From Patescibacteria group bacterium (GTDB lineage Bacteria; Patescibacteriota; Patescibacteriia; UBA1558; GWA2-36-10), in the NCBI GenBank assembly GCA_018062885.1, contig JAGORJ010000004.1:1-48168 (forward strand): a DNA stretch of 48,168 nt, written 5' to 3'. The notes under the pieces are model-generated. The model saw only the letters and a program-made list of their open reading frames with translations. It was not told the DNA's origin and made no database searches. Numbering within the stretch: position 1 is the stretch's first letter; the number at the start of each line of letters is the position of its first letter. The position numbers and the translations under genes are program-made. Positions 5,228-21,954 of the stretch are shown here, piece by piece.

Positions 5228-5698
5228 ATGGCAGACAATAATTTTGAAATACCACAGTCAGTTGAGCAAGTGAATAAAGTAGAGGCGAGTGCGGCTCAAG
5301 CGACAGAAAACAAGCGAGAACAAGCTGTTCGGGAAAATATCCAACATTCCGAAGCAGCTAATATTGATTTGTCCAAAATAAATAATGCTACTAATAATCA
5401 AATAGTTCGAAATTCAGACATAGAACTTAAAAAAGTAGAAAACATTTTGGCGGAAAATATGGACAAGGTTTTTTTGTCTTTAGATGCGCCTACGCAAATG
5501 ATATTCAAAAACAAAGGTGAAGAAGTAGCTAAAAAAATCAACGTTTTATTGCAGTCTGGTCAAGTCAAAATAAAAAAAGTCTTAGATCTTATTTTAGAAT
5601 GGTTGCGGGTAATTCCCAAAATCAATAAGCATTTTTTACAGCAAGAAGCCAAGATCAAAGCGGATCAAATAATGAATTTATATCATAAAAATAAATAA
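5228..5698 (+). CDS. Unknown protein ahead of membrane ATPase
   Basis: A 156-residue soluble protein. The first 60 residues are polar and rich in N, Q, A and E, and look disordered; from about residue 65 the sequence is helical with alternating charged and hydrophobic residues ('LKKVENILAENMDKVFLSL', later 'VLDLILEWLRVIPKINKHF'). No signal peptide or membrane segment is seen. Its stop overlaps the start of the next gene by one base (TAATG), so the two are probably translationally coupled and work together. I know of similar short proteins ahead of HerA-type ATPase genes in Patescibacteria, but no function. Confidence 0.7.
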   Translation: MADNNFEIPQSVEQVNKVEASAAQATENKREQAVRENIQHSEAANIDLSKINNATNNQIVRNSDIELKKVENILAENMDKVFLSLDAPTQMIFKNKGEEVAKKINVLLQSGQVKIKKVLDLILEWLRVIPKINKHFLQQEAKIKADQIMNLYHKNK

Positions 5699-8142
5699 TG
5701 ACTATTAGTTTAAATCTAATTCTTTTTCTGGTTTTGCCGATAATTATCTTACTTGGCTTAATTTTTTTTATTTTTTGGTACAAACGCAGTATCAATAAAC
5801 ACATTGAGCTAGAAATATTATCTTTTAAGATTCCAAAATATACCCAAAAAGACCAAGAAATTTTGAGCAAAGAGTATATCAATAGTGCTTTGGGTAAAAT
5901 AGAAAATTTATTTACCGCTCTAGCTGGCTTAAAAGCGGAAAAAACTTGGAAAAAAGAACAGATTTTTTCTTTAGAAATGGTGGCGCTTGATGGCGAGATT
6001 TGTTTTTATGCCGCTGTACCCAAAAAACTCAAAGAATTTTTTATCCAACAATTTCAAGCTGCTTATCCAAAAATTTATTTTGAAGAAATTCCTGACTACA
6101 ATATTTTTGAAGCCAACTCTGCGATCAAAGCTGGCGCCTTGAGACTAAAGAATGATTTTGCTTTGCCGATCAAGACTTATCATGTTTTTGAAAATGATCC
6201 CTTAGAAAGTATCACCAATGCTTTAAGTAAGCTCAATGAACATGAAGCAGCGGCCGTGCAATATGTTTTTCGCTCAGCCAACAAATCTTGGCATCAACGA
6301 GGCCGTAAAATCATCAAACACATGCAAGAGGGTATGAGCTTAAAAGCAGCGGTTGATAAAGCCGGTACTATCGGTTTTGCTGGGTTTATATCAGCCACTT
6401 TGAGTTTTATAGCTAGTTTTTTCAAATCAAGCGATAAAGAAAAAGATGGCTTAAAAAACTATCCGGAAAAAAACATTGCTTCAGCTAAAGAACAAGAAAT
6501 CAGCAAGCTTTTGGAAGACAAAAACTCCAAGCCAGCTATGGATGTAAATATTCGCATTGTGGTTGCTAGCCAAAACATTGAGCGCTCCAAGATGCTTTTG
6601 GATGACGTGCTCAACAGCTATGCTCAGTATAATATTTATGAATTTGGTAATAGTTTTGAAGCACAGATACCAAGAAACCCAGATAAAATCATTGAAGAGT
6701 TTATTTTCCGCCAATTTAAATCCAATAGACGCTTGCTTCTCAATGCCGAGGAAATGGTCAGTATGATTCATCTGCCTTTACCGACTACCGAAACGCCAAA
6801 TATCGCTTGGCTAGAGGCTGTCAAAGCGCCACCACCAAACAACATGCCACAAAATGGCTTGATATTAGGCAAAAGCTCTTATCGTGGCCGAGAAACTCTC
6901 GTGCGCATCAAAGACAATGACCGTCGCAGGCACATGTATATCATCGGTCAGACTGGTGTTGGTAAATCGGTTTTACAAGAAAGTTTGATAGTCCAGGACA
7001 TTCAGTCTGGCAAAGGTGTTTGTGTGGTTGATCCCCATGGAGACTTGGTAGAGGCTATCATGTCGCATATCCCCAAAGAAAGAGCTGAGGATGTCATTTT
7101 GTTTGATCCAGCTAATTCTGACAGACCTTTGGGCATGAACATGCTTGAGTATGATACCGAAGAGCAAAAGTCTTTTGTGATCAATGAAATGATCGCTATC
7201 TTTGATAAACTCTACAATCTCAAAGCGACTGGTGGTCCAATGTTTGAACAGTACATGCGTAATGCGATGTTGCTGATCATGGATGATAAAAATGAGGGCG
7301 CAACTTTGTTGGAGATCCCCAAGATTTTGGCAGATGCTAATTTTAGAAAACAAAAGTTAGCTAAAGTTTCCAATCAATTTGTCAAAGATTTTTGGGAAAA
7401 AGAAGCCGAGAAAGCTGGTGGTGAAGCAGCTTTGGCAAATATGGTGCCTTATATCACCAGTAAACTGACACCTTTTATTTCCAATGATCTTATCAGACCG
7501 ATTATTGCCCAAAGTAAAAGTGCTTTTAATTTTCGTGAAGCCATGGATAGCGGCAAAATTGTTTTGCTCAATCTTTCCAAAGGTAAAATCGGAGAAACAA
7601 ATAGTAGTTTACTTGGTATGATTGTGATCGGAAAACTTTTGTTTGCTGCTATGAGTAGAGTCAATATCGCTGAAGAAGAGCGCAAAGATTTTTATTTATA
7701 CATTGATGAGTTCCAAAATTTTATCACCGACACTATTTCTATTATTTTATCTGAAGCGAGAAAATATCGTTTAGGCTTGGTCCTGGCTCATCAATTTATT
7801 GCGCAGTTAGTCAAAAATGGTGAGACCAGTGTCCGCGACGCTATCTTTGGTAATGTCGGCACTATTATTTCTTTCCGTATCGGTGTAGAGGACTCTGAAG
7901 TAGTGGCTAAACAAATGGCACCAGTAGTGACAGAATATGATTTGATCAACATGCCAAAACATACTTGTTACGCCAGACTTTTGATCGACAATGCCGCTCC
8001 ACCAGCCTTTAATTTTAAACCTATCATGCTGGAGAAAGGCAATTTTGAACTAGCGCAAGCCATCAAAGAGTTATCAGCCTTGAAGTATGGTAGAGACAAA
8101 AAACTGGTTGACCAAGACATTTTGTATCGTTCTGGCTTATAA
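5698..8142 (+). CDS. Membrane-anchored HerA/VirD4-like ATPase, fused form
   Basis: An 814-residue protein combining a membrane/periphery module with a motor. Residues 5-29 are a membrane helix; about 35-390 resemble the separate 508-residue protein at 17100 (both carry an 'S.E.V..DG' strand and later 'YP...EE..DY'). From 395 a DUF87/HerA-TraG-type ATPase follows, with Walker A GQTGVGKSV (417-425), DPHGDLVE, and Walker B YLYIDEFQNF (D670, E671). Families with this motor pump DNA or couple substrates to type IV secretion. No relaxase or other secretion gene is nearby, so transport of DNA or protein is inference. A terminator follows at 8164. Confidence 0.8.
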   Translation: MTISLNLILFLVLPIIILLGLIFFIFWYKRSINKHIELEILSFKIPKYTQKDQEILSKEYINSALGKIENLFTALAGLKAEKTWKKEQIFSLEMVALDGEICFYAAVPKKLKEFFIQQFQAAYPKIYFEEIPDYNIFEANSAIKAGALRLKNDFALPIKTYHVFENDPLESITNALSKLNEHEAAAVQYVFRSANKSWHQRGRKIIKHMQEGMSLKAAVDKAGTIGFAGFISATLSFIASFFKSSDKEKDGLKNYPEKNIASAKEQEISKLLEDKNSKPAMDVNIRIVVASQNIERSKMLLDDVLNSYAQYNIYEFGNSFEAQIPRNPDKIIEEFIFRQFKSNRRLLLNAEEMVSMIHLPLPTTETPNIAWLEAVKAPPPNNMPQNGLILGKSSYRGRETLVRIKDNDRRRHMYIIGQTGVGKSVLQESLIVQDIQSGKGVCVVDPHGDLVEAIMSHIPKERAEDVILFDPANSDRPLGMNMLEYDTEEQKSFVINEMIAIFDKLYNLKATGGPMFEQYMRNAMLLIMDDKNEGATLLEIPKILADANFRKQKLAKVSNQFVKDFWEKEAEKAGGEAALANMVPYITSKLTPFISNDLIRPIIAQSKSAFNFREAMDSGKIVLLNLSKGKIGETNSSLLGMIVIGKLLFAAMSRVNIAEEERKDFYLYIDEFQNFITDTISIILSEARKYRLGLVLAHQFIAQLVKNGETSVRDAIFGNVGTIISFRIGVEDSEVVAKQMAPVVTEYDLINMPKHTCYARLLIDNAAPPAFNFKPIMLEKGNFELAQAIKELSALKYGRDKKLVDQDILYRSGL

Positions 8143-8228: not shown

Positions 8229-8822
8229 ATGCCAAACGCAAAAAATATTAAAGATCTAGAATCTTTGATTTACAATCTAGAACTAGAGCTCAAAAAAACC
8301 AAAGTAGTCTTGGGTGAATTGCAGGGTAAAAAGGGCTCCAAGGCTATTGATTATAGCCTCAAAGCCGCTGAATATGGCCGTGAAGACAACGAAGACGACG
8401 CTATGGTGGTAGAGGGTGTCTTTAATGGTCAAATCATGATCGGACCAGACGGTAAACAGTATTCTGTACCCGCTAATTACGCTTCCAAATCCAAATTAGT
8501 TGAGGGTGACATTTTGAAGCTCACGATTGATAACTCCGGCGCCTTTATTTTCAAACAAATTTTACCGGTAGAAAGACAGAGATTGATAGGACATCTGGTC
8601 AAAGATAAAGAAAACGGTAACTTTGTAGTTTTGGCAGGAGAAAAAATATTTAAAGTTTTATTAGCCAGCATTACCTATTTCAAAGGTGATGAAGGTGATG
8701 AAGTGGTAATCTTGGTGCCCAAAGACGCTGATGGTGCTTGGGCAGCCGTAGAAAATGTGATCAAAAACAAACAGTATAATAATTATCAAAGCGAAGAGGA
8801 GGATTTAGGCATTAATTTATAA
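8229..8822 (+). CDS. Conserved-looking protein, coiled coil plus beta domain
   Basis: A 197-residue protein. Residues 5-35 form a leucine-rich coiled coil ('DLESLIYNLELELKKTKVV'), a linker follows, and residues about 60-180 are rich in beta-type, glycine-punctuated strands ('GQIMIGPDGKQYSVPANYASK', then 'EGDILKLTID'), suggesting one or two small barrel (OB/SH3-like) domains. The tail is acidic. It sits two bases ahead of dnaX, so a link with replication or transcription is possible. I recall similar proteins in Patescibacteria, sometimes misnamed as ribosomal proteins, but I cannot name a function. Confidence 0.7.
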   Translation: MPNAKNIKDLESLIYNLELELKKTKVVLGELQGKKGSKAIDYSLKAAEYGREDNEDDAMVVEGVFNGQIMIGPDGKQYSVPANYASKSKLVEGDILKLTIDNSGAFIFKQILPVERQRLIGHLVKDKENGNFVVLAGEKIFKVLLASITYFKGDEGDEVVILVPKDADGAWAAVENVIKNKQYNNYQSEEEDLGINL

Positions 8823-13220: not shown

Positions 13221-14891
13221 ATGCAAAAAAACACTATTTTTCAGGTCAAGCAAGTAAATAAGAATCAAATCCGGCTAACTTTTTTAGCCATTGTTTTATT
13301 GACAGCCTTTGCGGTGGCCGTTATTTGGCCAAACGGTTTTGGCTGGTTTAATCAATTTAAAATTCATTTAGGTTTAGATTTGCAAGGTGGTACACATTTG
13401 GTTTATGAAGCTGATGTAGCTGCCATTGAGAGCGTCGACAAGAAAGAGGCGGTTGAGGGTGTGAGAGATGTGATTGAACGCCGTGTCAACGCCTATGGTG
13501 TGTCTGAGCCAACAGTGCAAACAAACTATAGTGGCGATAATTATCGTATCATTGTCGAGCTGGCTGGTGTCAAAGATGTGAGTGAGGCTATTCAAATGAT
13601 TGGTGAAACTCCACTGCTTGAATTCAAAACTCAAGGTGAGGCTTTGCCTAGCACTGACCAAACTGCTATTGATGCCAATGTAGAAGCTAAAAACTTGGCT
13701 CAAGAAATTTTGAACAAAGCTTTACTAGGTGACGATTTTGCTCAATTAGCCAAAGAGTATAGTGAAGATTTAGAGTCTGCCCAAAATGGTGGTGATTTAC
13801 CTTGGGTCAAAAAAGGTGATTTTGTGCCTGAGTTTGACCAAGCTATCTTTGATACTTTGAAAATAGGTGAGATATCCCAAGAATTAGTTGAATCACAATT
13901 TGGCTATCATATTATCAAAAAGCTAGAAGAAAGACTCAATGATCAAGGTGAAATCGAAGTACATGCTGCTCATATTTTGATCAAAAATAGCAACGCTGAT
14001 TTAGGCGCTGTCACTTGGGAAACTACTGCTTTAGGCGGTCGCAATCTACAAAGAGCTTATTTGGAGTTTGATCAAAATACAAATAGACCAATGGTTGGCT
14101 TAGAGTTTAATGCCGAAGGTAAAGACTTATTCGCTAGTATCACTGAGGCCAATGTCGGCAAACCGGTTGCTATCTTTTTGGACGGTTTCTTGATCTCTGC
14201 TCCAACTGTGCAAGAGGCTATCAAAGATGGTAACGCTGTTATTTCTGGTGACTTTGATGTCAAAGAAGCCAAAGACATGGTCAGACGTCTAAACTCTGGC
14301 GCACTGCCTGTGCCAATCAATTTGATTAGCCAACAGACTATCGGTGCTTCTTTGGGTGCAAATTCTGTTTCCCAAAGTTTGACCGCTGGTATTGTCGGTT
14401 TACTGGCAGCCGCTCTATTTATGCTTATTTTTTACCGCTTGCCAGGTCTTGTGTCAGTTTTGGCCTTGGGCGTTTATTCGGCTATTACTTTAGCTATTTT
14501 TGCCATGATCCCAGTCACTATGACTTTAGCTGGTGTAGCAGGTTTTATTCTTTCTGTGGGTATGGCGGTGGACGCAAATATTTTGATCTTTGAAAGAACC
14601 AAAGAAGAGTTGAGAGCAGGTAGAAGCTTGGTCTCAGCCGTTGAAAATGGCTTTGCTAGAGCTTGGAGTTCTATTCGTGACTCAAACTTGTCTTCTATCA
14701 TCACCTGTTTGATTTTAGCTTGGTTTGGTACCTCGATAGTCAAAGGTTTTGCTATCACTCTCGCTATCGGTATTTTGGTCTCAATGTTTTCCGCTATTAC
14801 CGTGACTCGTACTTTATTACATTTGACAGTCAACAAAAAATTTGAAGAAAAACTCTGGCTATTTGGATTAAATAAAAAAAGACAAGAATAA
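13221..14891 (+). CDS. secD: Protein translocase SecD with parvulin-like insert
   Basis: A 556-residue subunit of the SecDF complex, which uses the proton gradient to pull exported proteins out of the SecYEG channel. An N-terminal helix (20-36) is followed by 'GLDLQGGTHLVYEAD', the P1 head region, and a C-terminal half with five hydrophobic segments and the motif 'MAVDANILIFERTKEEL'. Unusually, about 118 residues (140-258) between 'LLEFK' and the rest of P1 match a PpiC/parvulin prolyl isomerase. SecD proteins that I recall from Patescibacteria can carry this insert. secF follows after four bases. Confidence 0.95.
   Translation: MQKNTIFQVKQVNKNQIRLTFLAIVLLTAFAVAVIWPNGFGWFNQFKIHLGLDLQGGTHLVYEADVAAIESVDKKEAVEGVRDVIERRVNAYGVSEPTVQTNYSGDNYRIIVELAGVKDVSEAIQMIGETPLLEFKTQGEALPSTDQTAIDANVEAKNLAQEILNKALLGDDFAQLAKEYSEDLESAQNGGDLPWVKKGDFVPEFDQAIFDTLKIGEISQELVESQFGYHIIKKLEERLNDQGEIEVHAAHILIKNSNADLGAVTWETTALGGRNLQRAYLEFDQNTNRPMVGLEFNAEGKDLFASITEANVGKPVAIFLDGFLISAPTVQEAIKDGNAVISGDFDVKEAKDMVRRLNSGALPVPINLISQQTIGASLGANSVSQSLTAGIVGLLAAALFMLIFYRLPGLVSVLALGVYSAITLAIFAMIPVTMTLAGVAGFILSVGMAVDANILIFERTKEELRAGRSLVSAVENGFARAWSSIRDSNLSSIITCLILAWFGTSIVKGFAITLAIGILVSMFSAITVTRTLLHLTVNKKFEEKLWLFGLNKKRQE
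13638..13994 (+). other. Parvulin-like domain inserted in SecD
   Basis: Residues about 140-258 of SecD read as a rotamase: 'LGDDFAQLAKEYSED', 'SAQNGGDLPWVKKGDFVPEFDQAIF', 'LKIGEISQ' and 'FGYHIIKKLEER'. In free parvulins the opening strand 'HILI' comes first; here 'EVHAAHILIK' comes last (about 246-255), so the domain looks circularly permuted, or is one domain plus the start of a truncated second copy. It would face the outside of the membrane, placed to help proteins fold as they emerge. Confidence 0.8.
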
Positions 14892-14895
14892 GCTT

Positions 14896-15786
14896 ATGAA
14901 TTACAATATTATCAATTCAAGAAAAATTTGGTTTACTATTTCTGGCTCTTTGATGGCCTTAAGTATTATTTCCTTATTGTTTTGGGGTTTAAAATTAGGC
15001 ATTGATTTTACTGGAGGCAGTTTATTGGAAGTTTCTTATCAAACCGCTCGTCCTAGTATTGAAGAAGTGACTCAAACACTTTCTGCTGTAGAACTACAAA
15101 GCCTCAAGGTGCAACCAGCTGGAGACAATGACTTCTTAATTCGTTTTGAAAATGTCTCTGAAGTCAAACATCAAGAAGTTTTGGATCAACTCAAAAATCA
15201 AGTAGAGGGTCAGCTAGAGGAGAGGAAGTTTGAATCTATCGGACCAACTATCGGTATGGAGCTGCGCAACAAAGCGGTGACTGCTATTGTCGTAGTTTTG
15301 ATTTTTATCTTAGCTTACATTGCCTATGTTTTCCGCAAGGTCTCAAGACCAGTAGCTTCTTGGAAATACGGCATGGCCGCTATCGTTGCTTTGTTTCATG
15401 ATATTTTGATTGTGACTGGTATCTTTTCAGCCTTAGGCTTTTTCTTTGGCGTAGAAATTGACACCTTGTTTGTCACGGCTCTATTGACGATTTTGGGATT
15501 TTCTGTTCATGATACTATTGTTACTTTTGATAGAGTGCGAGAAAATTTATTTAAAGTACATAACCAAAGTTTTGAAGAAATTGTCAATATCAGTGTCAAC
15601 CAAACAATCACTAGATCGATAAATACCTCATTAACCTCCATTTTAACGCTTTTAGCCGTCTACATCTTTGGTGGAGAGAGTGTCAGAGACTTCGTCTTAG
15701 CCTTGATTTTAGGCTTTATTGTCGGTACCTATTCCTCAATCTTCATTGCCTCACCATTACTCGTGTGGTGGAATAAGAGTAAATAA
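14896..15786 (+). CDS. secF: Protein translocase SecF
   Basis: A 296-residue membrane partner of SecD. It begins with a helix, then the SecF signature 'KLGIDFTGGSLLEVSY' (about residues 34-49) and a short outer domain. Five further hydrophobic segments carry 'ALFHDILIVTGIF' and 'GFSVHDTIVTFDRVREN', the conserved SecF motifs with proton-relay aspartates. The length is normal. It starts four bases after secD and is followed by a strong terminator at 15814. Confidence 0.95.
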   Translation: MNYNIINSRKIWFTISGSLMALSIISLLFWGLKLGIDFTGGSLLEVSYQTARPSIEEVTQTLSAVELQSLKVQPAGDNDFLIRFENVSEVKHQEVLDQLKNQVEGQLEERKFESIGPTIGMELRNKAVTAIVVVLIFILAYIAYVFRKVSRPVASWKYGMAAIVALFHDILIVTGIFSALGFFFGVEIDTLFVTALLTILGFSVHDTIVTFDRVRENLFKVHNQSFEEIVNISVNQTITRSINTSLTSILTLLAVYIFGGESVRDFVLALILGFIVGTYSSIFIASPLLVWWNKSK

Positions 15787-15895: not shown

Positions 15896-16996
15896 ATGAG
15901 TTCAATTTTAGATCAAGTTATGACTGCCCAACAGCTATCTCATTTAGCTGATTTTAATCCTAGCGCCACTGTGGAGCGTATTTTAGCGCTACTTGCTGAG
16001 CGTGAACAAGAAATCTTGAAGATGAGACATGGCCTGGCTGGTGCAGAAAAAAAGACTTTGGAAGACATTGGTCGCCAATACAAGATCACTCGTGAAAGAG
16101 TGCGTCAAATTGAAAACAGTGCTTTGAAAAAAATTAGCAAAAGCTTTGATGAGAGTTTCTTAAAACACATCGAAGATATAGCTAATGCTATTTTGGCTGA
16201 GCATGGTGGCATGATGTCAGAAGAAAATCTGATTAAGGAATTATTATTGATCCCTGGCTTAACCGATCAAAATAAAGCTGCTATCAACTTTGTTTTGAAT
16301 CAGCTACTTAATCATCGTTTTCACTTTGTCAAAGAAAGTAAACATACTCATAATTTTTGGAAAACTCCAGAAGCTTCATTGAGCTTCTTTGAAGAAATTG
16401 TAGAAAAATTAAGAGCCTTGATTCATTCACATGCAGATACTTTATCACTTGATGATTTGATGAAAAAAGTCATGGCCGCTGATTTCTTTGTAAACAACGA
16501 AGAATTGACTGATAAAGTGGTAGTTAACTTTTTGTTTATTACCAAGAAGATCAAAAATAATCCTTATCAAGAATGGGGTTTATCTGAATGGTCAAGTATC
16601 AGCCCAAAGAGAATGAATGACAAAATTTATATTGTCTTAAAGAAAGAAAATAAGCCATTACATTTTACAGAAATCGCTGAAATCATCAATCAAAAAGATT
16701 TTGACAAACGCAAAGCTTATCCAGCTACTATCCATAATGAATTGATTTTAGATGGTAAATATGTTTTAGTCGGTCGTGGTATTTATGCCCTTAAAGAATG
16801 GGGCTATAAGCCAGGAGTTGTCGCTGATGTGATTGCTGAGATTTTGACAGAGCTTGATAGACCACTAAGCAAAAAAGAGATCATCTCTGAGGTTATGAAA
16901 AAGCGTATGATCAAAGAAACAACTATCGCTTTAGCCTTGATGAATAAAGACCGTTTTGAAAGAGATGCTAAAGGCAGATACGCCCTCAAGAAGTAA
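15896..16996 (+). CDS. Sigma region 4 / HARE-HTH regulator
   Basis: A 366-residue DNA-binding protein. Residues 27-77 are a sigma70 region 4 helix-turn-helix ('LLAEREQEILKMRHG', then 'TLEDIGRQYKITRERVRQIE'), the part that reads the -35 box, but there is no region 2 or 3, so it cannot act as a normal sigma factor. Residues about 240-306 match HARE-HTH, as in the delta subunit (RpoE) of Firmicutes RNA polymerase; a further winged-helix-like end runs to 366. It probably binds RNA polymerase or promoters as an accessory factor. It is transcribed alone, between its own promoter and terminator. Confidence 0.85.
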   Translation: MSSILDQVMTAQQLSHLADFNPSATVERILALLAEREQEILKMRHGLAGAEKKTLEDIGRQYKITRERVRQIENSALKKISKSFDESFLKHIEDIANAILAEHGGMMSEENLIKELLLIPGLTDQNKAAINFVLNQLLNHRFHFVKESKHTHNFWKTPEASLSFFEEIVEKLRALIHSHADTLSLDDLMKKVMAADFFVNNEELTDKVVVNFLFITKKIKNNPYQEWGLSEWSSISPKRMNDKIYIVLKKENKPLHFTEIAEIINQKDFDKRKAYPATIHNELILDGKYVLVGRGIYALKEWGYKPGVVADVIAEILTELDRPLSKKEIISEVMKKRMIKETTIALALMNKDRFERDAKGRYALKK

Positions 16997-17099: not shown

Positions 17100-18626
17100 A
17101 TGCAAATAGACTTTTGGATTTTCACTATAGATTTTTCCCCTTTTTTAGCAGCCGCTGATAAAGGCCTGTTTTTTGCGATTATCTATATTTTTTTAAACGG
17201 CGGCTGGATTTTATTTGTATTACTTTTAGCTAGACCGATTTATGATATCTGGCAAATGGAAGTGCAAAACAAATGGTTTGATACCAACAAATTTGTTTTG
17301 TTAGCCATTGATATCCCTAAAGAACACGAGCAAACACCAAAAGCGGTAGAGGGCTTATTTGCTACTGTCTCTGGTGCTCACGCTAATATCAATAAAGTAG
17401 ATGAATATATCAAAGGTGTTTTTCAATTGGCTTTTTCTTTTGAAATTGTCAGTATTGATGGCTATGTCCAATTTTTGGTGCGCACTCCCGTTCAGTATAG
17501 AGATGTAGTGGAAAGCGCCGTTTATTCTCAATATCCAGACGCAGAAATCACTGAAGTAGAGGATTATACCACTTGGGCACCAAAAGAATTTCCTGATGAA
17601 AACTATAACATTTGGGGCACAGATATAGTCTTGACCGCACCTGATGCTATCCCTATTCGTACTTATCCTGCTTTTGAAGATAAAGTTTCTGGTGAATACA
17701 AAGATCCACTAGCAGCCTTACTGGAAACCATGAGCAAAATCCATATGGGTGAACAAGTCTGGTTTCAGATACTTGTTAGACCAACTGGCGTTGAGTGGAT
17801 CAAAAAAAGTGAAGCTTTAGTTTATAAATTAGCTGGCAAAAAAGCTGCACCAAGCAAAGGAAGTGCTGCTAATCAATCAGTTGATTTTCTGATGAACACG
17901 GTAGATAATATCGGTGAATTTATTTATCCTTTGTGGAAAGAAAGCAAAGAAAAAAAAGACGATATGCCGAGCATGATGCTTCATCTAACTCCTGGAGAAA
18001 AATCCACTATTGAAGCGATTGAAAATAAGGCTGGCAAAATTGGCTTTGAATGCAAAATCCGTTTAGTTTATTTATCTCCAAATGAAGACTTTAGTCCTAA
18101 CCGGGTGATTTCTTCAGTTTTTGGTTCTATCAAACAATTTTCTACTTTGGATCTCAATGGTTTTAAACCTGACTCTTCGACCAAAACTTCAACTAACTAT
18201 TGGTTTACTAAATATCGCAATAAAAAAAGAAAAGCAAAAATTATCCGCGCCTACAAAGGCCGTAGCACGGTAGTCGGTTCTAACGCTTTTATGTTAAACA
18301 CCGAAGAATTAGCTAGTCTTTGGCATTTTCCTGGTATTGAAGTCAAAACACCACTATTGCACCGCACTGACACCAAAAAAGGCACACCACCATCAGGCTT
18401 ACCTATCACTGACAATCAAGCTAGTGATGAGAGTGTAGACTTACAAAAACAATTACACAAAGTTGCTAGTTTTAATGTCGATCTAGACAACAACTATTTT
18501 GAAGATAAGTTCGCTAAAAACAAAAGCAGCGAAACTCCTGAAGTCTCTATTGAGCTAAGCAAACAACTAGGCAAGCAAATTGCAGACAAAAAGGGCACAC
18601 CGCCTCCTAATTTACCTATCGGATAA
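17100..18626 (+). CDS. Membrane protein partner of ATPase 18631
   Basis: A 508-residue protein with an N-terminal hydrophobic region (about 16-47) and a large cytoplasmic part. Residues about 60-240 ('FSFEIVSIDGYVQFLVRTPVQ', then 'YPDAEITEVEDY') resemble the N-terminal half of the fused ATPase at 5698, so this appears to be the same membrane module as a separate gene. The last 85 residues are polar and contain the motif KKGTPPxxLPI twice (18375-18407 and 18588-18620), the second at the very end. The ATPase starts four bases after the stop, so the two are surely one system. Function unknown. Confidence 0.75.
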   Translation: MQIDFWIFTIDFSPFLAAADKGLFFAIIYIFLNGGWILFVLLLARPIYDIWQMEVQNKWFDTNKFVLLAIDIPKEHEQTPKAVEGLFATVSGAHANINKVDEYIKGVFQLAFSFEIVSIDGYVQFLVRTPVQYRDVVESAVYSQYPDAEITEVEDYTTWAPKEFPDENYNIWGTDIVLTAPDAIPIRTYPAFEDKVSGEYKDPLAALLETMSKIHMGEQVWFQILVRPTGVEWIKKSEALVYKLAGKKAAPSKGSAANQSVDFLMNTVDNIGEFIYPLWKESKEKKDDMPSMMLHLTPGEKSTIEAIENKAGKIGFECKIRLVYLSPNEDFSPNRVISSVFGSIKQFSTLDLNGFKPDSSTKTSTNYWFTKYRNKKRKAKIIRAYKGRSTVVGSNAFMLNTEELASLWHFPGIEVKTPLLHRTDTKKGTPPSGLPITDNQASDESVDLQKQLHKVASFNVDLDNNYFEDKFAKNKSSETPEVSIELSKQLGKQIADKKGTPPPNLPIG

Positions 18627-18630
18627 ATAT

Positions 18631-20454
18631 ATGAGTCAAGATATTAATTTTTTTGCGGAAACCAATTTTCGTCACGGTAAGGTGAAATTTGGCATCAAAA
18701 CTGACGACCGTCGTCGTCATATGTATGTCATCGGCAAAACTGGTATGGGTAAGTCCACTTTACTAGAAAACATGATCATTCAAGATATCCAAGCTGGTCA
18801 CGGTGTTTGCGTGATCGATCCTCATGGTGACTTGGTAGAAAAAATAGTAGATTTTATCCCTAACTCTCGAGTCAACGATGTAGTTTATTTTAATCCAGCC
18901 GACTTGGATTTTCCGATTGCTTTCAATGTTTTGGAAAATGTACACGAATCAGAAAGACATCTAGTAGTTTCGGGTTTAATAGGTGTTTTCAAAAAAATCT
19001 GGGCAGACTCTTGGGGTCCACGTTTGGAATATGTTTTACATCACGCTATTTCAGCTTTACTAGAATATCCCGGCTCAACTTTGTTGGGTATCATGAGAAT
19101 TTTGGTAGATAAATCATTTCGTAACCGAGTGATAGAAAAAGTGACTGATCCGGTGGTCAAATCTTTTTGGGTTGACGAGTACTCAAAATATCCAGACAGA
19201 TTTCAGAGTGAAGCCATAGCACCTATCCAAAACAAGGTTGGTCGTTTTTTATCTTCAGCCTTAGTGAGAAATATTTTGGGACAGGTGAAATCTTCTTTTA
19301 ATATGCGCCAAATTATGGATGAGCAAAAAATTCTTTTGCTTAATTTGGCCAAAGGTAGAGTAGGTGAAGATAATTCAGCTCTACTTGGTGCCATGATGAT
19401 CACTAAAATCCAACTCGCTGCTATGAGTAGGGTAAATATCCCAGAAAATGAACGAAAAGATTTTTATTTGTATGTAGATGAGTTTCAAAACTTTGCCACC
19501 GAATCTTTTGCTGGTATTTTATCAGAAGCTAGAAAATATCGCTTAGATTTGACTATTGCTCACCAATACATCGAACAAGTAGAGGAAAATGTCCAAGCCG
19601 CCGTTTTTGGTAATGTCGGTACACTGGTTGCTTTTAGAGTTGGCGCTACTGATGCTGAATTTTTGGAAAAAGAATTTTTCCCTACTTTCACTCAAACAGA
19701 TTTAGTCAATCTGACCAAATTTGAAATTTACTTGAAGCTTATGATTGACGGTGTTTCTTCGGAAGCTTTTTCAGCCGCCACCATGGCCCCGATTGATAAA
19801 GCTTATAGTGATCCAGAAATAAAAGACAAAGTCATCAAAGTCTCGAGAGAAAGATACGCTAAACCAAGAGAATTGATTGAAGAAAAAATTATCCGTTGGA
19901 GTGAAAACAAAGAAGACACTACAGAAGCACCAAGTAGTAAAGATAAACCGAATTCCAGTAATACCATACATCTGCCAACAAGTAAGCGTGCGCCTGAGAC
20001 CAAGTCCGACAGCTTGTCAAAAAACCCACGAGAAAAATCAAGGGAAAAGCCAAAAAAATCTATCAGAAATAAAGTTATCTGCTCTTTTTGTGGTAAAAAT
20101 ACAGAGATTAATTTTGATCCAGATCCAAGCAAACCTATTTACTGCAAAGAATGTTTAGACTTATCCAAACAAGGAAAAATTCCCTCACCAAACAATATAA
20201 AAATTGTAGAAGACAAAATACCAGTAGAAGAAGAAAAAGACAATGACGGTTTTATTTCTTTGGCAGAGGCCTTGAAAATAAAACCAAACCTCATGAGTGA
20301 AAACGTAGAGGTAGAAAAAGACATGGCTATTCGACAAGCCAAAAGTGACGAAGCCATTCAACAAGCTCAGAGTGAGGAGACACCTCAACAAACTCAAGCT
20401 GACACTGATCAAGATAAAAAAATTATTCAACCAGGAGAAATAATAAAATTTTAA
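18631..20454 (+). CDS. HerA/VirD4-like ATPase with zinc ribbon
   Basis: A 607-residue motor. ATG 18631 is preferred because it is the first ATG after the upstream stop; a longer frame from 18580 would overlap that gene. Walker A is GKTGMGKST (35-43), then DPHGDLVEK and Walker B YLYVDEFQNF (D283, E284); 'ILSEARKYRLDLTIAHQYIEQV' is typical of the DUF87/TraG group. After about residue 420 comes a polar linker, a four-cysteine zinc ribbon (C484, C487, C505, C508; pattern 'CSFCGKN...KPIYCKECL') and an acidic Gln-rich tail. The zinc ribbon is absent from the paralogue at 5698. Likely a DNA or protein pump with the 17100 protein. Confidence 0.82.
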   Translation: MSQDINFFAETNFRHGKVKFGIKTDDRRRHMYVIGKTGMGKSTLLENMIIQDIQAGHGVCVIDPHGDLVEKIVDFIPNSRVNDVVYFNPADLDFPIAFNVLENVHESERHLVVSGLIGVFKKIWADSWGPRLEYVLHHAISALLEYPGSTLLGIMRILVDKSFRNRVIEKVTDPVVKSFWVDEYSKYPDRFQSEAIAPIQNKVGRFLSSALVRNILGQVKSSFNMRQIMDEQKILLLNLAKGRVGEDNSALLGAMMITKIQLAAMSRVNIPENERKDFYLYVDEFQNFATESFAGILSEARKYRLDLTIAHQYIEQVEENVQAAVFGNVGTLVAFRVGATDAEFLEKEFFPTFTQTDLVNLTKFEIYLKLMIDGVSSEAFSAATMAPIDKAYSDPEIKDKVIKVSRERYAKPRELIEEKIIRWSENKEDTTEAPSSKDKPNSSNTIHLPTSKRAPETKSDSLSKNPREKSREKPKKSIRNKVICSFCGKNTEINFDPDPSKPIYCKECLDLSKQGKIPSPNNIKIVEDKIPVEEEKDNDGFISLAEALKIKPNLMSENVEVEKDMAIRQAKSDEAIQQAQSEETPQQTQADTDQDKKIIQPGEIIKF

Positions 20455-20457
20455 TTT

Positions 20458-21954
20458 ATGTCATACTATCTCAAAGTAAAAAAACTTGATATCAAGACTG
20501 GCCAATCAAATATTGCTTTACTCAATGACACCGAAGCCATGCACTATGGTATTCATGCTGGCGATAAAATCAGAATTTCTTGGGACAAAAAAAACATCAT
20601 TGCCGAAGCTAATACTAGTGAAGAAAAAATCAAAGCCGGCTCTATCGGTTTATACAAAGACATTTGGGAAAAAACATCTGTGGCTATAAATACTATAGTA
20701 GAGATAGAAGTTTTGGAACGCGCACCATCTGTCCAGGCTATCAAAAAAAGATTGCTGGGCAAAAAATTAACTTACAATGAATTTAAACAGATTTTTACTG
20801 ACATTTCTTCTGGCATTTTGACCAGGACAGAAATCACTTATTTTGTCGCCTCTGGCTTTATGCGCCAATATACTGACGAGGAGCTTTATTTTATGACTAA
20901 AGCCATGGCTGAAACCGGTGAAATGATCAAATTTCCTGGGCTAGTAGTAGATAAACATTCAGTTGGTGGACTAGCTGGCAACCGAACCACCATGGTTGTC
21001 ATACCAATTATCGCAGCTTTGGGTCTCACTATTCCTAAGACTTCATCTCGTGCTATCACTTCACCAGCTGGTACATCTGATACTATGGAAGTTTTGGCGC
21101 CTGTATCTTTGTCTGCTAAACAAATCAAAGAAGTTGTCGAAAAACATGGCGCTTGTTTGGTTTGGGGCGGTGGTTTAAATTTGGCGCCAGCTGATGACAA
21201 GATTTTGAAAGTGTCTTATCCATTGTCATTAGAACCTTATAGTAAAATGCTAGTGAGTATCATGGCTAAAAAAGTAGCCACCGGAGTCAAAGTTTTGATT
21301 ATTGATATGCCAGTTGGACCAACTACCAAAATCCCTAACATGGAAATAGCGAGAGACTTAGAAACAAAGTTTAAATATCTGGCCAAAAAATTTGGTATCA
21401 AAATCAAAGTTATTATGATCAAAACCGAGGACCCAGTCGGTCGTGGTGTTGGTCCAGCTTTGGAAGCTAGAGATGTTTTGCGAGTTTTACAACAAAAAGA
21501 TAATTACCCAGCTGATCTAGCTAACAAGTCAATTCATTTGGCTGGTGAGCTCCTAGAGCTGTCTGGTAAGGCTAAAAAAGGCCACGGCGCTACTTTGGCT
21601 TGGAAAACCTTGGAAAGTGGTAAGGCTTGGACTAAAATGCAAGAAATCATCAAAGCTCAGGGTGGTAACCCAAATGTTCAGCCTGACGACATTGTTTTGG
21701 GTGCTTGCAAAAAATATATTGAAGCCAAAAAATCTGGTCATATCATTTTCACTGATAACAAAATGATCAATACGATAGCTCGTATTTTAGGAGCGCCAGC
21801 TGATCAGTTAGCTGGAGTTTACCTAAACAAAGAATTTTCTGATCCAGTCAAAAAAGGCGAGAGACTGTTTACACTTTATGCTCGCAGTCAAGATAGAATC
21901 AAATTAGCTTTGAAGGCTTTGGAAAAAGGTGAAATATTTAAAATAGGAAAATAA
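20458..21954 (+). CDS. AMP phosphorylase (archaeal-type DeoA)
   Basis: A 498-residue enzyme of the thymidine phosphorylase superfamily. It has the N-terminal extension of the archaeal AMP phosphorylase branch ('YLKVKKLDIKTGQSNIALLN') and the motif 'VDKHSVGGLAGNRTT' (about 164-178) with 'IPKTSSRAITSPAGTSDTMEVL'. AMP phosphorylase turns AMP and phosphate into adenine and ribose-1,5-bisphosphate, the first step of the AMP salvage path that ends in RubisCO in archaea and some Patescibacteria. No RubisCO or R15P isomerase gene is in the window. It begins three bases after the ATPase gene. Ordinary pyrimidine phosphorylase is the alternative, but the motif favours AMP. Confidence 0.88.
   Translation: MSYYLKVKKLDIKTGQSNIALLNDTEAMHYGIHAGDKIRISWDKKNIIAEANTSEEKIKAGSIGLYKDIWEKTSVAINTIVEIEVLERAPSVQAIKKRLLGKKLTYNEFKQIFTDISSGILTRTEITYFVASGFMRQYTDEELYFMTKAMAETGEMIKFPGLVVDKHSVGGLAGNRTTMVVIPIIAALGLTIPKTSSRAITSPAGTSDTMEVLAPVSLSAKQIKEVVEKHGACLVWGGGLNLAPADDKILKVSYPLSLEPYSKMLVSIMAKKVATGVKVLIIDMPVGPTTKIPNMEIARDLETKFKYLAKKFGIKIKVIMIKTEDPVGRGVGPALEARDVLRVLQQKDNYPADLANKSIHLAGELLELSGKAKKGHGATLAWKTLESGKAWTKMQEIIKAQGGNPNVQPDDIVLGACKKYIEAKKSGHIIFTDNKMINTIARILGAPADQLAGVYLNKEFSDPVKKGERLFTLYARSQDRIKLALKALEKGEIFKIGK

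What the first reader, a model, noticed from the sequence alone, without database searches (positions are those of the whole stretch)
5228..8142. Fused membrane module plus HerA/VirD4-like ATPase with a small partner
The 814-residue protein joins in one chain what is split into two genes at 17100-20454. It is coupled by TAATG to a 156-residue protein of unknown role. No relaxase, coupling partner or other type IV secretion gene is near, so this may be an unstudied membrane pump for DNA or protein.
Basis: partly seen in the sequence, partly recalled or inferred. Interest (0 to 1): 0.6.

Follow-up and report, generated by a model that had tools for sequence, protein, structure and literature searches.

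The report
Phylum-wide secretion-type ATPase with small partner
A membrane-anchored pumping ATPase, related to the motors that feed DNA or protein into bacterial conjugation machines, is kept in nearly every sampled genome of a huge group of tiny host-dependent bacteria, here with a small companion gene, and is a good candidate for the missing 'loader' of their secretion machine.

Summary
Both genes exist as described (156 aa, 5228-5698; 814 aa, 5698-8142; TAATG). The 814-aa protein (A) is a membrane helix, a ~350-aa N-domain and a VirD4/TrwB-like ATPase. Its N-domain is homologous to the 508-aa protein (profile E 2.8e-59), but the direction was misread: single chain is the commoner form, the split pair (B) a likely fission. 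A and B are ancient paralogues; 378 of 380 Patescibacteria genomes have A/B matches. 0 of 120 A/B loci hold virB4 or trsD, and neighbours are housekeeping genes. Yet a type IV secretion (T4SS) locus lies on another contig, and in 11 of 11 haloarchaeal plasmid loci the same N-domain is a separate gene between VirB4 and a TraD-like ATPase; in phage G a single-chain relative follows VirB4. Best reading: a dispersed, domain-extended coupling-type ATPase of the patescibacterial T4SS. Against an exclusive role: 15 of 380 genomes lack VirB4 but keep A/B, and a t4cp gene is reported non-essential. The partner has a disordered head and a helical domain, is class-restricted, and is perhaps an adaptor. 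VirD4 homologues, about two per genome, are already in print; I found no description of N-domain, paralogy or partner.

The parts
5228..5698 (+). P: 156-aa partner gene; residues 1-57 predicted disordered, 58-155 a five-helix domain
   Evidence: ORF; alignment of 50 relatives; AlphaFold2 mean pLDDT 77.8, helical part mostly over 94; no Pfam family over cut-off; 111 of 115 class genomes
5696..5700 (+). TAATG: stop of P overlaps start of A
   Evidence: sequence; in relatives 62 of 69 P-A gaps lie between -4 and +20 bases, 19 of 69 overlap
5698..8142 (+). A: 814-aa membrane-anchored VirD4/TrwB-like ATPase with extra N-domain
5716..5772 (+). N-terminal transmembrane segment (residues 7-25)
   Evidence: hydropathy; 58 of 58 aligned relatives have one near the N-terminus
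5785..6852 (+). family-specific N-domain (residues 30-385; two lobes about 30-232 and 262-385, with a low-confidence linker)
   Evidence: homologous to the 508-aa protein, to haloarchaeal single-gene N-proteins (E 2.7e-28) and to phage G gp156 / SPO1 gp27.4
6853..8040 (+). ATPase domain (residues 386-781), TrwB/VirB4 fold
   Evidence: Pfam; VIA-align Z 29.4 to VirB4 C-terminal domain (341 residues, 3.0 A), Z 28.9 to TrwB (366 residues, 3.4 A)
6946..6969 (+). Walker A GQTGVGKS (residues 417-424)
   Evidence: G417, G420, G422, K423 invariant in 58 rows
7159..7506 (+). helical insertion (residues 488-603), about where TrwB has its all-alpha domain
   Evidence: secondary structure of the model; equivalence to the all-alpha domain is inferred
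7696..7722 (+). Walker B LYIDEFQNF (residues 667-675)
   Evidence: D670, E671, F672 invariant in 58 rows
17100..18626 (+). B-N: N-domain half of paralogue B (508 aa), one N-terminal hydrophobic segment
18631..20454 (+). B-C: ATPase half of paralogue B (607 aa from ATG; 624 aa from TTG 18580)
   Evidence: 45% identity to A over 390-809; start
20071..20157 (+). CxxC-x17-CxxC zinc finger near the C-terminus of B-C
   Evidence: PF23477 8.2e-10 and TIGR04272 3.7e-10, residues 498-527 of the 624-aa ORF
8229..8822 (+). 197-aa gene of unknown family, conserved next to A (neighbour, not claimed as part of the machine)
   Evidence: near A in 54 of 120 loci, position +1 in 46; no Pfam match
15896..16996 (+). 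sigma-70 region 4 + HARE-HTH protein, a neighbour of B in several families (neighbour, not claimed as part)

Best explanation
A (814 aa) and its paralogue B are substrate-loading (coupling-type) ATPases of a type IV secretion machine whose other parts are encoded elsewhere on the chromosome. SHOWN: one N-terminal membrane segment, a ~350-aa N-domain, a VirD4/TrwB-like ATPase with intact Walker motifs; homology to gene pairs or single chains that sit directly behind VirB4 in haloarchaeal plasmids and phage G; VirB4 and PrgI in the same genome and no PF03432 relaxase. INFERRED: the ATPase forms a hexamer on the cytoplasmic face of the membrane, held by the N-terminal helix, with the N-domain docking on the VirB4/VirB3 platform; ATP hydrolysis moves a substrate (protein effector, or DNA) into the channel; the co-translated 156-aa protein binds A as an adaptor or brake, as small proteins do for other coupling ATPases (CagZ on Cag-beta appears as an entry title; DotN/IcmSW on DotL is recalled). 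Two ancient copies may load different substrates or back each other up, which would explain why a single t4cp gene scored non-essential.
For: ATPase signature; fold: best Foldseek matches are full-length TrwK/VirB4 (E 5.1e-15, 919 columns) and TrwB (5.1e-12), VIA Z 29.4 and 28.9. The N-domain gene lies between a VirB4-like gene and a TraD-like gene in 11 of 11 haloarchaeal plasmid loci examined (11 of the 26 plasmid records that matched), with a gene annotated pilin in 5 of the 10 annotated ones (L203-L206, L211). Phage G gp155 is VirB4 (1.2e-64) immediately before gp156, the A-like single chain (1.1e-43 for the ATPase part). One of those plasmids is typed conjugative with a MOBP relaxase. Own genome: VirB4 and PrgI on contig C3 beside TrsD-like and, by reading, VirB6-like and pilin-like ORFs. 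A/B in 378 of 380 and VirB4 over cut-off in 362 of 380 phylum genomes. The Cell 2023 study reports no recognisable coupling protein in the S. epibionticum T4SS (passages).
Against: 0 of 120 Patescibacteria loci with A/B carry virB4 or trsD near by. 15 of 380 genomes have no VirB4 by two searches and all 15 keep A/B; G059 (1 contig) and G120 (2 contigs) are rated 100% complete. Two genomes (G104, G331) have VirB4 but no A/B. SPO1, D6E and MRSA107 phages carry an A-like gene with no VirB4 in the fetched stretch. The survey of T4SS in the phylum states that the t4cp of S. epibionticum is not essential while other T4SS genes are. Canonical VirD4 has a two-helix anchor (recalled); this family has one helix plus a large N-domain. 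Nothing here shows contact with the T4SS.
Confidence: 0.5

Rival explanations
1. Ced-like DNA-import motor: A and B, two HerA/VirB4-architecture ATPases, pull host or environmental DNA inward through a membrane pore, feeding nucleotide salvage, alone or together with T4SS parts.
For: Same layout as archaeal CedB/CedD (TM, N-terminal domain resembling VirB4's, HerA-like ATPase; two co-occurring paralogues needed for import), read as passages of PMC11868833. NCBIfam CedD matches A (1.4e-7) and B (7.1e-8), ATPase part only. Persistence without VirB4 in 15 of 380 genomes. The T4SS survey itself proposes import of DNA or other macromolecules.
Against: CedD score 30.5 bits against a curated cut-off of 600. 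CedB/CedD are described as complementary to VirB4, whereas A/B co-occur with VirB4 in most genomes. No CedA-like channel gene was looked for. In haloarchaeal plasmids and phage G the relatives sit with VirB4.
Confidence: 0.17
2. T4SS-independent chromosomal DNA translocase or genome-maintenance motor (HerA/FtsK-like) tied to replication, tethered to the membrane.
For: dnaX lies within six genes of A in 71 of 120 loci, and A/B are universal like housekeeping genes; DndH, HerA and FtsK folds score Z 17-27; kept when VirB4 is lost.
Against: A separate FtsK is present in the own genome; 33 of the 35 genomes searched have one over the cut-off; the sequence signature is TrwB/TraD, FtsK only 14.4 bits under its cut-off of 24; the plasmid relatives and phage G sit by VirB4; one homologue is reported non-essential.
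Confidence: 0.15
3. Remnant or cargo of an integrated conjugative element.
For: Related genes occur on haloarchaeal plasmids, a Pontibacillus plasmid and Bacillus phages.
Against: Vertical pattern: A and B groups are both present in 11 of 11 genomes for which both loci were in hand; flanks are housekeeping genes; no PF03432 relaxase in the 35 genomes searched.
Confidence: 0.03
4. About P only: P is not an adaptor but an independent gene that merely shares the transcript, or a secreted substrate of A.
For: In G311 P lies on a different contig from A, with no A-like gene in the 8 kb fetched; other classes have unrelated small genes in the slot.
Against: P abuts A in 69 of 74 loci with room to tell; the slot just before A often holds some small acidic gene even where P's family is absent.
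Confidence: 0.3

Closest known systems
VirD4-type type IV coupling proteins (TrwB, TraD, DotL, Cag-beta)
   Same: ATPase sequence family, fold (Z 28.9 TrwB, 26.2 DotL, 22.7 Cag-beta), helical insertion, DEF-type Walker B
   Different: one membrane segment instead of a two-helix anchor, plus a ~350-aa N-domain that matched nothing in Pfam or NCBIfam; dispersed from virB4; two ancient copies; no PF03432 relaxase
VirB4 (TrwK)
   Same: full-length Foldseek match including the N-terminal part (E 5.1e-15); layout N-domain + ATPase
   Different: no sequence signal between the N-domain and patescibacterial TrsD/VirB4 N-regions (probability at most 1.5); a true VirB4 exists separately in the genome
Archaeal CedB/CedD DNA-import ATPases
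   Same: TM + N-terminal domain + HerA-like ATPase, two co-occurring paralogues (passages of PMC11868833)
   Different: far below the CedD cut-off; co-occurs with VirB4
Haloarchaeal plasmid N-protein + 'TraM recognition' ATPase pairs; Bacillus phage G gp156, SPO1 gp27.4
   Same: homologous N-domain and ATPase; the plasmid pairs are arranged as the window's split copy
   Different: about 20-25% identity; next to VirB4 in the plasmids and phage G, not in Patescibacteria
Patescibacterial t4cp homologues of PMC12102498
   Same: very probably the same genes (5,713 in 2,918 genomes, 148 near virB4)
   Different: the parts of the paper that I read do not describe the N-domain, the two clades, the small partner or the plasmid/phage relatives

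Membership tests
VirD4-type coupling protein (T4CP) | TrwB/TraD/TraG ATPase signature | tested here: met
   PF10412 41.9 bits (cut-off 20.5), PF02534 34.5 (20.1), PF12696 26.5 (22)
VirD4-type coupling protein (T4CP) | RecA-like fold with helical insertion as in TrwB | tested here: met
   Z 28.9, 366 residues, 3.4 A to 1e9s; helices 488-603
VirD4-type coupling protein (T4CP) | two-helix N-terminal anchor with short external loop (recalled) | tested here: not met
   one N-terminal hydrophobic segment then a ~350-aa domain; 58 of 58 rows have the segment, three of them (L089, L118, L120) two adjoining ones
VirD4-type coupling protein (T4CP) | gene near T4SS or relaxase genes (usual, not invariable) | tested here: not met
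   0 of 120 Patescibacteria loci with virB4 or trsD; met by relatives in 11 of 11 plasmid loci and phage G
VirD4-type coupling protein (T4CP) | recruits substrate to the T4SS | not testable with these tools
   needs experiment
VirB4 | VirB4 ATPase signature (PF19044) | tested here: not met
   no PF19044 match for A at E 0.1; the genome's two PF19044 matches are on contig C3
VirB4 | VirB4-type N-terminal domain | tested here: inconclusive
   full-length Foldseek match but overall rmsd 12-18 A, and no profile signal; N-domain not folded alone
CedB/CedD | scores above the CedD family cut-off | tested here: not met
   30.5 bits against 600
CedB/CedD | DNA import | not testable with these tools
   needs experiment
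FtsK/SpoIIIE | PF01580 over cut-off | tested here: not met
   14.4 bits against 24; separate FtsK at G000:C54

The most novel reading that the evidence does not exclude
A and B are a Ced-like import engine kept by practically the whole phylum: a pair of membrane ATPases that draws host DNA into cells that cannot make nucleotides, borrowing or replacing T4SS parts, with the small partner as gate. They would answer how these bacteria obtain nucleotides when ComEC is dispensable.
Probability: 0.13. Interest if true: 0.85.

Novelty: new variant of a known kind. Interest (0 to 1): 0.5.

Why it matters
The T4SS of a patescibacterium is reported as essential for its growth on the host, yet that study found no recognisable coupling protein (PMC10633639, passages), so what the machine moves and what loads it are open. 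This work names two phylum-wide candidates (A and B), gives gene-order evidence that their family belongs behind VirB4, points out that there are two paralogues (so single-gene Tn-seq may hide a role), and adds a class-wide partner that can be tested for binding. If the import reading is right it would bear on how cells without nucleotide synthesis live.

Tried and rejected
Integrated element: rejected (neighbours, vertical tree, no PF03432 relaxase). FtsK replacement: rejected, FtsK is separate. N-domain as a TrsD/VirB4 N-region by sequence: no signal, not better than five unrelated families, although the structure search suggests it; left open. P against known folds: no Foldseek match at E 0.001; best VIA rows Z 8.4 (phenylalanine ammonia lyase) and 7.2-7.7 (DGR accessory protein, 8ub8/8ub7/4dwl), which the tool's own note treats as common for helical bundles; not used. 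P's weak Pfam/NCBIfam rows (tRNA_synt_2f 0.0052, an SDR family 0.0013) are far under the cut-offs and taken as chance. Promoter scan: 9 found against 10.8 expected, no use. P beyond its class: none by profile in the 35 loci from outside the class (L164-L198); instead small genes with an LDEFHD-like tail in L055, L146, L165, L169, L172, L178 and, by eye, L149. Literature searches for a description of this N-domain, partner or plasmid/phage relatives; none seen in the listings; subscription papers are mostly not held and no supplement was read. Rows dropped: of 80 loci 2 had a cut A and 4 under 450 bases upstream, 60 of 176 ATPase rows were used, and L200, L199, L195, L203, L201 have long branches.
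Full report
What is there. The window carries, on +, a 156-aa ORF (P, 5228-5698) and an 814-aa ORF (A, 5698-8142) joined by TAATG. The window is contig C5 of a 731-kb genome; nearest named relatives of A are in Parcubacteria group GW2011_GWA2_36_10 and a Komeilibacterium, that is Patescibacteria.

Protein A. Residues 7-25 are a predicted transmembrane segment; 58 of 58 aligned relatives have one near the N-terminus. Residues 30-385 match no Pfam family over its cut-off and no NCBIfam one; 386-781 match the TrwB, TraG/VirD4 and HerA families over Pfam's cut-offs. Walker A and B residues are invariant in 58 relatives. The AlphaFold2 model (pLDDT 84.8, pTM 0.75) has as its best PDB matches full-length TrwK/VirB4 (E 5.1e-15 over 919 columns) and TrwB (E 5.1e-12); by VIA-align the ATPase ties VirB4 (Z 29.4) and TrwB (Z 28.9). 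The match of the N-domain itself to VirB4's is suggestive only: overall rmsd is 12-18 A, and profile comparison with patescibacterial TrsD/VirB4 gave nothing.

Fused or split. Profile comparison of A's N-domain with the family of the 508-aa protein gives probability 100 and E 2.8e-59 over 334 columns, five unrelated control families nothing. In a tree of 60 ATPase domains, A (43 rows) and B (13 rows) form two groups, with support 92/99 and 94/90, just under the tool's star level; phage and haloarchaeal rows fall outside, on long branches, and the root is by midpoint only. Both groups are present in 11 of 11 genomes for which I had both loci (the window's and ten others). Eleven of 13 B rows are single chains; the window and L198 are split. 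The 508-aa protein ends in GTPPPNLPIG, where A reads APPPNNMPQNG just before its ATPase. So the split copy is most likely a fission at the domain border, not A a fusion.

Distribution. A/B-type matches occur in 33 of 35 relatives and 378 of 380 phylum genomes at least 85% complete; the two misses stayed negative with a profile. P occurs in 31 of 35 relatives and 111 of 115 class genomes. P stands directly before A in 69 of 74 loci with enough upstream sequence; 62 of 69 gaps are -4 to +20 bases. In G311 P is on another contig from A. Outside the class P was not found by profile in 35 loci, but small acidic genes often fill the slot before A, some with a different LDEFHD-like tail.

Neighbourhood. 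A is commonly followed by a 197-aa gene of unknown family and by dnaX (54 and 71 of 120 loci within six genes). None of 120 loci holding A or B has virB4 or trsD. The own genome has VirB4 and PrgI on contig C3, in a stretch that also shows TrsD-like, VirB6-like and pilin-like ORFs (L159; VirB6 and pilin by reading, not by a family search). No PF03432 relaxase was found in 35 genomes; other relaxase families were not tested.

Relatives elsewhere. tblastn of the N-domain found 26 plasmid records, most of them haloarchaeal, at about 20-25% identity in the rows listed. In all 11 haloarchaeal loci that I fetched (11 of 26 records; one further record, Pontibacillus, was also fetched) the order is VirB4-like, N-domain gene, TraD-like ATPase, touching, overlapping or within about 85 bases (annotations). 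The N-proteins match A's N-domain by profile (E 2.7e-28). The Pontibacillus copy has the N-gene and a broken-up ATPase, no VirB4 in the stretch. In phages, 31 records match: phage G gp156 (2e-45) follows gp155, a VirB4 (1.2e-64); SPO1 gp27.4, D6E and MRSA107 have an A-like single chain without VirB4 in the stretch.

Co-occurrence with the T4SS. VirB4 (PF19044) is over the cut-off in 362 of 380 genomes. Of the 18 others, three (G067, G140, G385) gave fragments with the own VirB4 as query; 15 gave none: G201, G404, G051, G058, G066, G100, G120, G145, G189, G282, G309, G314, G376, G388, G059. All 15 have A/B matches. Outside that sample, G027 (one contig, 96%) lacks VirB4 and PrgI and has A, B and P. 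Losses are thus not coupled, which argues against A/B serving the T4SS alone; but absence rests on searches and drafts, and near-universality leaves little power.

Literature. PMC12102498 (abstract, passages, sections 12, 13 part 1, 15): 5,713 VirD4 homologues in 2,918 genomes (data set of 3,035), 148 near virB4; t4cp of S. epibionticum not essential; relaxases rare; import of macromolecules proposed. PMC10633639 (passages): T4SS essential, no recognisable coupling or relaxase proteins in it. PMC11868833 (passages): CedB/CedD architecture and DNA import. PMC9905601 and PMC12857230 (passages) were used for background. I did not see the N-domain family, the A/B paralogy, the partner or the haloarchaeal/phage arrangement described (search).

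Judgement. Works like: a membrane-anchored coupling/translocation ATPase of the VirD4-VirB4-HerA group (fold and motifs shown; activity inferred). Is it a VirD4 coupling protein? Not filed as one: its anchor and gene context differ from the canonical family; it is a domain-extended relative whose family context elsewhere is a VirB4 system. Role as loader of the dispersed T4SS: about 0.5. P as its adaptor: inference from gene coupling only.

Noticed in passing
window 13221-14888: SecD-like protein with a PPIC-type peptidyl-prolyl isomerase domain (residues 151-236, 2.3e-25) between its SecD first-segment and P1-head matches; SecF follows at 14896. A translocase with a built-in folding enzyme looks unusual.
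   Followed up: no
window 15896-16996: 366-aa protein combining sigma-70 region 4 (3.8e-14) and HARE-HTH / RNA polymerase delta-like domains, upstream of B in the window and in L179, L184 and L198 of other families.
   Followed up: partly
window 8229-8822: 197-aa protein with no Pfam match, kept near A and dnaX in many families (54 of 120 loci).
   Followed up: partly
L199 (Bacillus phage G, gp155 and gp156): A jumbo phage encodes a VirB4 followed by an A-like coupling-type ATPase, the former matching patescibacterial VirB4 at 1.2e-64.
   Followed up: partly
L200 (SPO1 gp27.4), L213 (D6E gp23): SPO1-group and thermophilic phages carry full-length single-chain relatives without VirB4 in the fetched stretch, near genes annotated partition protein.
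   Followed up: partly
L202 9239-11696 (Pontibacillus plasmid): The ATPase following the N-domain gene is read as two separate ORFs 1.5 kb apart, suggesting an insertion or decay.
   Followed up: no
B loci of G005, G008, G010, G019, G024: In several relatives the ATPase match holds one in-frame TAA within an open frame of about 1000-1180 codons, so the halves of B seem parted by one stop; simple fission or read-through not examined.
   Followed up: no
L195 (G166): A further, very divergent B-group ATPase with several hydrophobic segments.
   Followed up: no
L128, L143: Contigs titled Lysobacteraceae and Methylomirabilis carry typical patescibacterial A genes (50% identity), probably misbinned MAG contigs.
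   Followed up: no
window 20458-21954: AMP phosphorylase / archaeal-type thymidine phosphorylase (TIGR03327 5.6e-167) directly after B.
   Followed up: no
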